In this document: positions 3,413 to 5,124 of the stretch, one piece after another
Position numbering within the stretch: the first letter of the stretch is position 1
How the letters are laid out: the number at the start of each line of letters is the position of its first letter
DNA from: an uncultured Collinsella sp.
GTDB taxonomy: Bacteria > Actinomycetota > Coriobacteriia > Coriobacteriales > Coriobacteriaceae
DNA length: 12,099 bases
Direction: 5' to 3'
Assembly (NCBI GenBank): GCA_934654605.1
Contig: CAKUGH010000050.1
Span: 1 to 12,099, forward strand
Translations under genes and position numbers: made by a program
Notes under the pieces: model-generated
What the model was told of the DNA's origin: nothing
Databases searched by the model: none
What the model saw: the letters and a program-made list of their open reading frames with translations, nothing else

Positions 3413-3502
3413 TGGTGTCGGAGGCGGGACTTGAACCCGCATGACCAAAAAGCGGTCACTAGCACCTCAAGCTAGCGCGTCTGCCAATTCCGCCACTCCG
3501 AC
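3413..3502 (-). tRNA. tRNA-Leu (anticodon GAG)
   Basis: A class II tRNA of 90 nt on the minus strand. The acceptor stem is GTCGGAG/CTCCGAC, with discriminator A and encoded CCA. The D arm has GGCGGAATTGGCAGACGC. The anticodon stem CTAGC/GCTAG encloses loop TTGAGGT, giving anticodon GAG, which reads CUC/CUU. A long variable arm (TGACCGCTTTTTGGTCA) and a GGTTCAAGTCC T arm complete it. A promoter lies upstream at 3560-3589 and an intrinsic terminator directly downstream. Confidence 0.97.
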
Positions 3503-3559: not shown

Positions 3560-3589
3560 ATAATAACCTATGATTCGAGAACTGTGCAA
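3560..3589 (-). promoter_or_regulatory. Promoter of tRNA-Leu
   Basis: TTGCAC (3584-3589) and TATTAT (3560-3565, five of six consensus bases) on the minus strand are separated by 18 nt. A start about seven bases downstream gives a leader of roughly 50 nt before the mature tRNA. The upstream palindrome lies 2 bp away, exactly as at tRNA-Gly. Confidence 0.7.
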
Positions 3590-3608: not shown

Positions 3609-3646
3609 TTTCGAATTTGTGAATGCGCTGGTAGATGTATATGTCC

Positions 3647-3771
3647 GGCCCCGAATCGGTGTTGCCTCCCGGCGCGTCCTCGGGCATGAGCGATATTTTG
3701 CTACGCACTTCGTGCTGCAAAATATCGCTCCCCCTGCGGAATGCGCCGGGGGGCAACACCGATTCGGGGCC
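3647..3771 (+). repeat. Giant hairpin element, copy 1
   Basis: A nested inverted repeat of 125 nt. The outer arms 3647-3675 and 3743-3771 pair over 29 bp with one G-U type mismatch. The inner arms 3688-3701 and 3717-3730 pair perfectly over 14 bp. Between outer and inner helices lie two 12-nt unpaired strands, GTCCTCGGGCAT (3676-3687) and CCCCTGCGGAAT (3731-3742). The 15-nt apex TACGCACTTCGTGCT (3702-3716) can form a small GCAC/GTGC stem. Orientation is assigned from the GTCCTCGG strand being 5'. It may act as RNA or as folded DNA. It is not an ordinary terminator, because no T tract follows on either strand. Confidence 0.85.
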
Positions 3772-3832
3772 TGCAAATACGTACTCCGGGCACAGTTCTC
3801 AAACATGTTCTGGGGGCTGATATAAAGTTTGT

Positions 3833-3851
3833 GGCTCGGCTTTGCCGAGCC
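3833..3851. repeat. Small hairpin GGCTCGGC-TTT-GCCGAGCC
   Basis: Perfect 8-bp stem with a 3-nt loop between the two giant hairpins. It has no adjacent T tract on the minus strand (ACAAAC follows), so it is a weak terminator candidate at best. It sits directly beside the palindrome CCTTATATAAGG (3851-3862). Confidence 0.6.
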
Positions 3852-3861
3852 CTTATATAAG

Positions 3862-3887
3862 GAGGCCGGAGCTTAAGCTCCGGCCTC
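3862..3887. terminator. 26-bp perfect palindrome, possible end of the opp transcript
   Basis: Two 13-nt arms beginning GAGGCCGGAGCTT are exactly complementary with no spacer, so a folded RNA would open a few central bases as a loop. On the minus strand, the direction of opp transcription, CTTATATAAGG follows, which is AT-rich but not a proper T run. On the plus strand ACTCAATTTGTTATT follows. It could be a poor terminator for oppBCDF, about 210 bases past the oppF stop, or a bidirectional or processing hairpin. Confidence 0.4.
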
Positions 3888-3911
3888 ACTCAATTTGTTA
3901 TTAGATTAAGT

Positions 3912-3952
3912 GAGCGATCAGGGAATCGCTCTCCCCCTGCCGAGTTACCGCA
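3912..3952 (+). repeat. Possible degenerate relative of the giant hairpin element
   Basis: GAGCGAT (3912-3918) and ATCGCTC (3925-3931) form a 7-bp stem with the same bases as the foot of the inner helix of copy 1. Just after it comes CCCCTGCCGAGT, close to the 3' loop strands of copies 1 and 2 (CCCCTGCGGAAT and GTCCTGCGGAGT). No 5' loop strand or outer arm can be seen. It could be a decayed third copy, or part of the flank of copy 2. Confidence 0.4.
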
Positions 3953-4079
3953 GGGCCCGCCCTGGAGTTAGTTTTCAGAACACTCCGCAGGACGCAAGAG
4001 ACCCCCGCCGCACGAAGTGCGCAGCGGGGGTCTCTTGCATGTCCGAGGACGTTCTGAAAACTAACTCCAGGGCGGGCCC
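3953..4079 (-). repeat. Giant hairpin element, copy 2, just after oppF
   Basis: A nested inverted repeat of 127 nt with the same plan as copy 1, in opposite orientation. The outer arms 3953-3981 and 4051-4079 pair perfectly over 29 bp. The inner arms 3994-4008 and 4024-4038 pair perfectly over 15 bp. On the minus strand the loop strands are GTCCTCGGACAT and GTCCTGCGGAGT, and the apex is TGCGCACTTCGTGCG. Loops and apex match copy 1 at 33 of 39 positions, while the inner helix sequence is unrelated and the outer helix matches at only about half. It starts 16 bases after the oppF stop codon, so it would be the 3' end structure of the opp mRNA. No T tract follows. Confidence 0.85.
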
Positions 4080-4095
4080 GAACAAGAACAACCGA

Positions 4096-5124
4096 CTACA
4101 GGTCGATGTGCGATTCCTTGATCGGGAACGGCTCGGCGAAGTGGCAGGCGCAGCAGTGGCCCGGGGCGACTTCCTTAAACTCAGGAAGCTTCTCGGAACA
4201 GATGCCCTGCGCGATCGGGCAGCGCGTGTGGAAACGGCAACCGGTCGGCGGATCCAGCGGCGACGGCGGATCGCCGGCGAGGATGATGCGCTTACGAGTC
4301 TTCTGGATATCCGGATCGGGCACCGGCACAGCAGACAGCAGCGACTGCGTGTACGGATGGTGCGGCTCGCTGTAGAGCGTCTTCCAGTCCGAAACCTCAA
4401 CCATCTTGCCCAGGTACATAACGGCAACACGGTCGGAGATGTGCTGCACGACAGAGAGGTCGTGGGCGATGAAGAGGTAAGCCGTGCCAAACTTGTCCTG
4501 GAGCTCCTTCAGCAGGTTCAGAACCTGCGCCTGAATGGAAACGTCCAAAGCTGAGACCGGCTCGTCGCAGATGATCAGCTTGGGCTTCAGAGCGAACGCG
4601 CGGGCAATGCCGACACGCTGACGCTGACCGCCCGAGAACTCGTGCGGATAGCGGTTGATGTGCTCGGGGTTCAGACCGACGACGTCCAGCAACTCGCGGA
4701 CGCGCTCGATGCGCTCCTCCTTGGTACCCACGCCGTGAATGGTCATGGGCTCGGAGACGATCTCACCAATCGTCATACGAGGATTCAGCGAAGCATAGGG
4801 ATCCTGGAAAATGAACTGCATCTCGCGGCGCATGTCCTTGATCTCATGCTTGCTCATCTCGGAGACATCTTTGCCCTGGAAGAAGACCTTGCCAGCCGTC
4901 GGCTTGGTGAGGCGCATGATGGTGCGGCCCGTCGTGGACTTACCGCAACCGGACTCGCCGACCAGACCGAAGGTCTCGCCCGGATAGATCTCAAACGAGA
5001 TGTCGTTCACAGCAGAGACGACACGCTTGGAGAAGCGCTTGGCGAACATGCCGGACTCAGCGGGAAACTCCTTGGAAAGGTGCTCGACCTTCAGCAGCGG
5101 AGTACGCTCGTTGGTATCTGCCAT
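4096..5124 (-). CDS. oppF: Oligopeptide ABC transporter ATP-binding protein OppF
   Basis: One of the two cytoplasmic ATPases that power the peptide importer. In 342 residues it shows Walker A GESGCGKS (56-63), Q-loop FIFQDP (about 104-109) and the signature FSGGQRQR (163-170). Walker B LIICDEP (183-189) and the switch histidine in AHD (His221) follow. The C-terminal oligopeptide-transporter extension has a cysteine cluster (GCRFHTRCP...C...GHCCACHF), typical of OppD/OppF/DppD/DppF proteins; in some family members these cysteines bind an iron-sulfur cluster. The start ATG at 5124 shares its A with the oppD stop (TAATG), which implies translational coupling. OppF versus DppF cannot be told from sequence alone; the order A-B-C-D-F fits opp. 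Confidence 0.93.
   Translation of the reverse strand: MADTNERTPLLKVEHLSKEFPAESGMFAKRFSKRVVSAVNDISFEIYPGETFGLVGESGCGKSTTGRTIMRLTKPTAGKVFFQGKDVSEMSKHEIKDMRREMQFIFQDPYASLNPRMTIGEIVSEPMTIHGVGTKEERIERVRELLDVVGLNPEHINRYPHEFSGGQRQRVGIARAFALKPKLIICDEPVSALDVSIQAQVLNLLKELQDKFGTAYLFIAHDLSVVQHISDRVAVMYLGKMVEVSDWKTLYSEPHHPYTQSLLSAVPVPDPDIQKTRKRIILAGDPPSPLDPPTGCRFHTRCPIAQGICSEKLPEFKEVAPGHCCACHFAEPFPIKESHIDL

What the first reader, a model, noticed from the sequence alone, without database searches (positions are those of the whole stretch)
3647..4079. Two giant hairpins with conserved loops but different, still perfectly paired helices
Copies at 3647-3771 (+) and 3953-4079 (-) share an exact blueprint: 29-bp outer helix, 12/12-nt internal loop, 14-15-bp inner helix, 15-nt apex. 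The unpaired parts are conserved: GTCCTCGGRCAT 11 of 12, the apex with GCACTTCGTGC 13 of 15, and the 3' loop strand 9 of 12. The inner helices are unrelated and the outer helices match at about half their positions, yet pairing is 29/29 and 15/15 in copy 2, and 28/29 (plus one wobble) and 14/14 in copy 1. A transposed repeat would keep its arms alike; conserved loops with covarying helices point to selection on a fold. The two loop strands also resemble each other (CCT, optional G, CGG), as if the same protein or RNA contact were presented twice. It may be an undescribed structured RNA or a folded-DNA element. I know of a described Collinsella-1 RNA motif but cannot say whether this is the same.
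Basis: partly seen in the sequence, partly recalled or inferred. Interest (0 to 1): 0.85.

Follow-up and report, generated by a model that had tools for sequence, protein, structure and literature searches.

The report
Giant gene-end hairpins in gut Coriobacteriia
Just after the stop codons of many Collinsella genes sits a very long hairpin whose small core stays the same while its paired arms change freely yet stay almost perfectly matched, which makes it a large relative of known bacterial gene-end palindromes and a natural test of how such matching is kept.

Summary
Both hairpins belong to a large, apparently unnamed family. Shorter forms with the same core (GTCCTC / TGCGGA) occur in other genomes of the class: 76 of 296 match at a strict cut-off, a lower bound.

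In 60 of 73 distinct copies the core lies 30-66 nt (mean 47.7, SD 8.0) after the stop codon of a same-strand gene; the opposite-strand control gives 21 of 73 with scattered distances. It is a 3'-UTR element, REP-like in place and as an IS110 target. It has no Rfam match, is not Collinsella-1, and in 30 loci no REP-type transposase carries it.

Covariation is massive, but one-sided transitions give A.C about as often as G.U (17 vs 19), and whole stems are replaced between strains. This points to copying between arms in DNA rather than RNA selection on each pair. The conserved core suggests a specific contact; my guess, untested, is an mRNA 3'-end element. Copy 1, beside tRNA-Leu, breaks the placement rule.

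The parts
3643..3775 (+). Copy 1: giant hairpin with foot motif (GTCC ... TGCA)
3647..3675 (+). copy 1 outer helix, 5' arm (29 nt)
3676..3681 (+). copy 1 core, 5' strand GTCCTC (invariant in the 24 representatives, which were chosen by it; 17 of 18 flank-chosen orthologues)
3682..3687 (+). copy 1 GGGC (three bases can pair with CCCC 3731-3734) plus AT bulge
3688..3701 (+). copy 1 inner helix, 5' arm
3702..3716 (+). copy 1 apex with GCAC-TTC-GTGC mini-hairpin
3717..3730 (+). copy 1 inner helix, 3' arm
3735..3742 (+). copy 1 core, 3' strand TGCGGA + AT (the IS110 insertion point in relatives)
3743..3771 (+). copy 1 outer helix, 3' arm
3949..4083 (-). Copy 2: giant hairpin in the 3' UTR of the oligopeptide ABC ATPase gene; core starts 45 nt after the stop codon
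4051..4079 (-). copy 2 outer helix, 5' arm
4045..4050 (-). copy 2 core, 5' strand GTCCTC
4039..4044 (-). copy 2 GGAC (pairs with GTCC 3990-3993) plus AT bulge
4024..4038 (-). copy 2 inner helix, 5' arm
4009..4023 (-). copy 2 apex
3994..4008 (-). copy 2 inner helix, 3' arm
3982..3989 (-). copy 2 core, 3' strand TGCGGA + GT
3953..3981 (-). copy 2 outer helix, 3' arm
4096..5124 (-). gene carrying copy 2: ABC_tran + oligo_HPY protein (oppF-like, name inferred)
3413..3502 (-). tRNA-Leu(GAG), divergent neighbour of copy 1 (the copy that breaks the placement rule)

Best explanation
A family of giant REP-like extragenic palindromes of Coriobacteriia that sits in mRNA 3' UTRs. Shown by sequence: a fixed distance after the stop codon, a fixed strand, a conserved core, and arms that are nearly free in sequence but matched. 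Inferred: (a) the hairpin acts in the transcript, most likely at the mRNA 3' end as a barrier to 3' exonucleases or a transcription stop, and its core is a contact for a protein or the RNA polymerase; (b) the arms are kept matched by a DNA-level process, template switching or hairpin-directed repair, that copies one arm onto the other, while selection removes copies whose core is lost; (c) ectopic recombination swaps whole hairpins or their caps between 3' UTRs. An IS110 element has come to insert at the core.
For: Placement: 60 of 73 distinct elements have a same-strand ORF of at least 100 aa ending 30-66 nt before the core, mean 47.7, SD 8.0; the opposite-strand control is 21 of 73, spread over 8-124 nt. 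16 of 17 Collinsella locus groups are co-directional, hairpin foot 8-35 nt after the stop. Conservation by gene: of 30 loci found through a GHMP-kinase gene, not through the hairpin, 21 have the core 41-51 nt after the stop, 15 of these in one 88-89%-identity group with four different stem types. Other groups holding proteins 69-93% identical share the placement: chaperonin, aldolase, PTA, SDH, FtsX and more. Core under constraint in 18 copy-1 orthologues found by the tRNA-Leu flank: pairwise diversity 0.019 (GTCCTC) and 0 (TGCGGA) against 0.17-0.19 in stems, 0.05 in the left and 0.25 in the right flank. DNA-level matching: 1894 WC, 19 G.U, 31 mismatched of 1944 arm cells; one-sided transitions 19 G.U vs 17 A.C. 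Module exchange: one 67-nt cap is identical at three loci with different outer arms (four groups, two of them alike), and 7 of 18 locus groups have more than one cap family. IS110: 5 left and 5 right distinct junctions, all at the core, in at least four hairpin loci; transposase confirmed. Template switching as a maker and keeper of hairpins is in print (PMC8794818: abstract and section 7 read).
Against: No expression or probing data, so transcription is inferred from position only. Copy 1 (all 26 entries of its group) has no co-directional gene on its 5' side; 13 of 73 elements fail the placement test, some at locus edges. The element can be lost: L145 and L150 (copy 2) and L396 (GHMP kinase) keep only remnants, and L384-L390 and L404 lack it. 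At groEL only 2 of 30 loci pass the strict test; four show the core on reading. No U-tract follows: the longest T run in the 12 nt after the outer helix is 3 or less in 28 of 28 distinct long forms, which speaks against a plain terminator; a crude scan found terminator-like hairpins further downstream in only 16 of 55, so a place before the terminator is not shown either. The G.U vs A.C counts are small; A1 gives 5 G.U and 3 A.C, and the 9 G.U and 12 A.C of A2 are inflated by internal loops out of register, so A2 is no fair test. My terminator control was biased by its pattern and is no control. The core was used to find most copies, so its invariance there is partly built in; searches are the only flank- or gene-based samples, and the left flank overlaps the query that chose the loci.
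Confidence: 0.55

Rival explanations
1. Structured RNA whose base pairs are individually kept by selection on the RNA fold.
For: Covariation far above shuffled and slid controls: 97.5% of cells paired, 42 of 56 pairs with two-sided change, slid versions 40-50%; same for the short form (88.4% against 33-54%); conserved core, 3'-UTR place and fixed strand.
Against: G.U is about 1% of arm cells and not favoured over A.C; stems are replaced wholesale between strains; arms of up to 43 bp share only a loose consensus near the core.
Confidence: 0.17
2. Ordinary transcription terminators that grew long by template switching; the core is an incidental tip without its own contact.
For: They occupy the terminator place; at groEL other genomes have plain GC-rich hairpins there, some with a TCCTCGCGGA-like loop (L367, L370).
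Against: The core is the slowest-changing part in a flank-based sample and recurs in other genomes of the class; no U-tract follows in 28 of 28; at the window locus a terminator-like palindrome lies further downstream (3862-3887).
Confidence: 0.13
3. Non-autonomous mobile element (MITE or REPIN) moved by a transposase.
For: Repeat family, cap exchange between loci, one case where a new hairpin sits next to the 3' half of an older one (L395), RAYT-like Y1 transposases exist in these genomes.
Against: No shared ends seen; arms match only loosely between copies; placement after orthologous genes in different genomes; of 30 Y1 loci only L288 holds the hairpin, and that is the copy-1 locus with an IS200-type gene; several RAYT-like genes carry their own GGGAC..GTCCC-type palindromes.
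Confidence: 0.08
4. Folded-DNA element (cruciform or ssDNA hairpin) bound by a nucleoid, repair or IS110 protein, with no role in RNA.
For: Near-perfect DNA palindromes; IS110 uses the core as target; matching behaves as a DNA property.
Against: Strand and distance are tied to the stop codon of the upstream gene, which a symmetric DNA palindrome would not need; IS110 looks like a parasite of a pre-existing sequence.
Confidence: 0.07

Closest known systems
REP / BIME / REPIN palindromes of Enterobacteria and Pseudomonas
   Same: Extragenic palindromes repeated in the genome, part of them just after stop codons, targets of IS110-type elements (IS621 into REP: PMC11208160 passages; insertion sequences into REP in general: PMC1525189 abstract; REPINs: PMC3116915 abstract; REP within 15 nt of a stop codon stalls ribosomes, as reported in PMC12306157 passages).
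   Different: About 70-135 nt, arms nearly free in sequence and only a small core conserved; strand and distance tied to the upstream gene; no linked RAYT transposase in the 30 loci examined; spread over several lineages of a class.
Collinsella-1 RNA (RF01700)
   Same: Collinsella, unknown function, structured.
   Different: Different sequence and place; found separately in G001 and G024, no match in G003 and G042.
RNA stems kept by template switching (Monttinen and Loytynoja 2022)
   Same: Perfect stems renewed by copying one arm onto the other; loops conserved (PMC8794818, abstract and section 7).
   Different: There RNA genes on reconstructed trees; here polymorphism within one species group at many loci.
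Intrinsic terminators
   Same: Hairpin at the 3' end of genes.
   Different: Far longer, conserved internal core, no U-tract after it.

Membership tests
REP / REPIN | Repeated palindrome in extragenic space | tested here: met
REP / REPIN | Shared primary sequence of the palindrome arms among copies | tested here: not met
   Only a loose consensus next to the core; the rest differs between loci and species
REP / REPIN | Association with a RAYT (Y1 REP-type) transposase | tested here: not met
   Y1_Tnp in 12 of 13 genomes. Of 30 loci scanned for a paired core, only L288 has one: the copy-1 locus with an IS200-type gene. Loci span about 1.5 kb either side; five listed matches had no locus
REP / REPIN | Target of IS110-family insertion | tested here: met
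   10 of 10 distinct junctions of one IS110 element at the core; seven came in by hairpin pattern, three (L274, L283) by IS110 search. Of 30 IS110 loci these two show its ends and L275 a short piece; target sites of the other IS110 elements were not examined
Collinsella-1 (RF01700) | Match to the Rfam model at gathering score | tested here: not met
   real RF01700 copies elsewhere
MITE | Conserved terminal inverted repeats | tested here: not met
   Outer arms differ between copies; only a weak foot motif is shared
MITE | Target-site duplication | not tested
   No clean empty site was found; losses look like deletions inside the arms
Intrinsic terminator | GC-rich hairpin directly followed by a U-tract | tested here: not met
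   Longest T run in the next 12 nt is 3 or less in 28 of 28 distinct long forms; short forms only read
Structured RNA (covariation-supported) | Covariation above phylogenetic background (R-scape) | tested here: inconclusive
   Strong by shuffles and slides but the pattern also fits template switching; R-scape not available
Structured RNA (covariation-supported) | Transcribed and folded in vivo | not testable with these tools
   no RNA-seq or probing data

The most novel reading that the evidence does not exclude
The hairpins are self-renewing palindromes: the DNA continually copies one arm onto the other and swaps whole hairpins or caps between gene ends, so stem sequence is free while a six-plus-six-base core is held by a dedicated, unknown partner acting at the mRNA 3' end of Coriobacteriia. 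If so, classic covariation, the usual proof of RNA selection, arises here mainly from mutation, and the core marks a new class-specific 3'-end system.
Probability: 0.35. Interest if true: 0.9.

Novelty: new variant of a known kind. Interest (0 to 1): 0.74.

Why it matters
Compensatory changes are taken as the best sign of selected RNA structure. Here many polymorphic loci inside one common gut species group let one ask directly whether matched stems are kept by selection or by copying between arms, since one-sided states, replaced stems and lost hairpins all coexist. If the core has a partner, it would be a 3'-end regulator for metabolic genes of a major gut lineage. It also supplies an IS110 target family, useful for bridge-RNA work.

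Tried and rejected
Collinsella-1: rejected. Rfam at gathering and relaxed thresholds: only generic hairpin models such as miRNAs below their cut-offs. RAYT link: not found in 30 loci; the frame printed was the transposase in only six of eleven loci, the others showed the opposite strand. Phage or plasmid origin: no match in IMG/VR by exact pattern or in the phage collection; one plasmid-labelled C. aerofaciens record of 900 kb, which may be chromosomal. Empty hairpins, with the core site but no cap: two hits, a short form and a small terminator-like hairpin. Terminator scan: crude, 16 of 55. First ORF caller mis-called genes on the wrong strand and was replaced. First gene-based script failed; redone with tblastn. 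The terminator G.U control and the A2 counts are not used as tests. One search counts include both strands of one place, so 14-25 matches per genome means fewer places; in G003, 27 matches are 18 places. In one search the core was part of the search pattern, so its low core diversity is not used.

Dropped rows: nine chance-hit loci (L026, L040, L046, L052, L056, L062, L081, L086, L090) were left out of the element counts because they lack the hairpin. In one search, of 22 orthologous loci plus the window, L153 (an insertion, IS30-like by eye, in place of copy 1), L157 (unreadable copy) and L160 (pattern miss) dropped out and L152 and L158 lacked the anchor; 18 remained.

Full report
OBSERVATION. 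The two hairpins are present as described and are far more stable than shuffled sequence. A scan of GTDB species genomes for both conserved loops in order found 90 stretches; of the 80 listed, 74 are Collinsella by title, and the other six lack the hairpin. The same scan of IMG/VR found none.

ANATOMY. Twenty-two distinct representatives plus the two window copies were aligned (A1). With the structure written out, 97.5% of 1316 cells pair, 42 of 56 pairs change on both sides, and versions slid by 1-3 columns pair at 40-50%. From foot to tip: foot motif GTCC..TGCG; outer helix of about 29 bp; a bulge (G against two bases); TCC/GGA; a TC/TGC internal loop; a short helix GGAC/GTCC; AT bulge; inner helix of 14-15 bp; apex hairpin. 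The outer arms share a loose consensus in the 15 bp or so next to the core. Other caps occur: GTCCTC[GACCA..] and GTCCTC[GCAC..] with a second TCCTGC..TGCGGA at the tip, and in other Collinsella a minimal GTCCTC-GGCC-TTC-GGCC-TGCGGA-like form (model R2).

DISTRIBUTION. Model R1 hits 35 of 43 Collinsella genomes at E <= 1e-3; 21 of them have 14-25 matches, counting both strands of one place. G003 has 27 matches at 18 places, 15 of them full length. Hits in other Collinsella are mostly the short form. R2 hits 76 of 296 genomes of the class at E <= 1e-4, with only 17 candidates scored per genome, so this is a lower bound. Of 30 further loci from eight genomes, 28 were flagged with a GTCCTC core and one more (L341) shows it by eye.

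PLACE. With a coding-potential gene caller, 16 of 17 locus groups, mostly C. aerofaciens, follow a same-strand stop codon, foot 8-35 nt away; the exception is the copy-1 group. Over 73 distinct elements, a simpler test finds a same-strand ORF of at least 100 aa ending within 130 nt in 60; the stop-to-core distance is 30-66 nt, mean 47.7, SD 8.0. The mirror test gives 21, with distances spread over 8-124. An earlier count on 55 elements gave 43 co-directional against 2 opposed within 60 nt. Of the 63 upstream proteins of at least 80 aa, 30 were scanned against Pfam; they include aldolase, PEP carboxylase, aminotransferase, aquaporin, GHMP kinase, chaperonin, phosphotransacetylase, serine dehydratase, FtsX and SRP54. 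Clustering the 63 gives 15 groups of two or more and 22 singletons; in the chaperonin, GHMP-kinase, aldolase, PTA, SDH, FtsX, TPP-enzyme and ATPase groups, proteins 69-93% identical from different genomes share the placement while the stems differ.

SAMPLES NOT CHOSEN BY THE HAIRPIN. (a) Loci fetched by the tRNA-Leu flank: in 18 aligned copy-1 orthologues, pairwise diversity is 0.17-0.19 in the helices, 0.14 in the apex, 0.019 in GTCCTC, 0 in GGGCAT, CCCC and TGCGGA, 0.056 in the next two bases, 0.05 in the left flank (which overlaps the query) and 0.25 in the right flank. Three stem families occur at this one site. (b) Loci fetched by a GHMP-kinase gene (loci for 30 of 41 genomes with a match): 21 have the core 41-51 nt after the stop; 15 of these belong to the group 88-89% identical to the query and show four different stem and cap types. 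Nine lack it, one of them (L396) by loss of the cap with part of the outer stem left. (c) Loci fetched by groEL: 2 of 30 by the strict test; four show the core on reading, and several others have long hairpins without it. Presence at a given gene is thus gained and lost.

HOW THE ARMS STAY MATCHED. Within loci, 55 two-sided Watson-Crick states, 39 one-sided states and 2 other two-sided states were counted relative to the commonest haplotype; over 81 arm haplotypes 1894 cells are Watson-Crick, 19 G.U and 31 mismatched. With other clusters, one-sided transitions were 19 G.U and 17 A.C, transversions 16, and 47 columns had two or more Watson-Crick types. RNA selection should tolerate G.U above A.C; that does not show. 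The two-sided counts partly reflect replaced stems, so only the G.U to A.C comparison is used as the test. Across representatives, A1 has 5 G.U and 3 A.C; A2 has 9 and 12, but there internal loops put pairs out of register. Template switching is known to repair and create stems (PMC8794818: abstract and section 7; PMC7202029 and PMC3820800: abstract starts in the listing). One haplotype has its core partly turned into paired sequence (GGGAC in place of GGAGT, L142/L155), as such copying would do; that this is rare argues for selection on the core.

EXCHANGE AND LOSS. An identical 67-nt cap occurs at three loci with different outer arms, and 7 of 18 locus groups have more than one cap family. 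In L395 a new hairpin begins right after the stop codon and is followed by the 3' half of a hairpin of the type still intact in L392. L145 and L150 have apparently lost copy 2 by deletions within the arms.

IS110. An element with a DEDD/Transposase_20 protein sits at GTCCTG|..|TGCGGA in five left and five right distinct junctions, in at least four hairpin loci. Seven junctions come from loci found by the hairpin; three (L274, L283) come from the IS110 search, whose other loci mostly hold other IS110 elements. L148 and L151, found by the tRNA-Leu flank, also carry it. IS621 does the same with REP in E. coli (PMC11208160 passages).

FUNCTION. Committed guess: an mRNA 3'-end element whose core is a contact; decay barrier is slightly preferred over transcription stop because no U-tract follows (28 of 28 distinct long forms). 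Nothing here shows transcription. E. coli REP within 15 nt of a stop codon can stall ribosomes (as reported in PMC12306157, passages read); here the foot is usually 8-35 nt after the stop, so a translation effect is also open.

LITERATURE. Ten full-text searches, seven of them naming Collinsella or its class or order, gave no description of these hairpins; subscription papers are mostly not held. Collinsella-1 is listed in PMC2864571 (one passage read). PMC8040213 reports thousands of candidate RNAs in human microbiomes; only one passage was read and its supplements could not be searched, so an unnamed candidate there may overlap.

Noticed in passing
L288-L314 (e.g. L291, L293, L299, L302): RAYT-like Y1 transposases of roughly 250-350 aa (type name and helix-turn-helix tail recalled, not searched); several lie next to their own GGGACAGTCCC or GGGGAC-type palindromes, a second, separate REP-like system.
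   Followed up: partly
L159, L161 (orthologues of window 3953-4079): Two different insertions beginning TGAACTGC (resembling IS3-type ends, recalled) lie at the same position in the hairpin apex (ACGAAGTG|TGAACTGC).
   Followed up: no
L151 / L004: The IS110 copy at the copy-2 hairpin is itself interrupted by another insertion that reads like an IS21 istB piece (by eye, not searched).
   Followed up: no
L395, after the GHMP-kinase stop codon: New hairpin placed directly before the 3' half of an older one, a snapshot of hairpin replacement.
   Followed up: partly
window 3574-3587 and 3790-3803: 14-nt inverted repeat (93%) brackets copy 1, the copy type without a co-directional upstream gene; a local inversion may explain its odd place.
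   Followed up: no
window 3862-3887: Perfect 13-bp palindrome GAGGCCGGAGCTTAAGCTCCGGCCTC between the two hairpins, terminator-like, with a changing centre among strains.
   Followed up: partly
NZ_OY725717.1 (L408): A 900-kb record labelled C. aerofaciens plasmid has four places similar to the window stretch and carries ftsE and ftsX; it may be a chromosome piece.
   Followed up: no
L027:4101-5486: The IS110 transposase that targets the hairpin has a C-terminal part with a weak HTH_3 match (below the curated cut-off).
   Followed up: no
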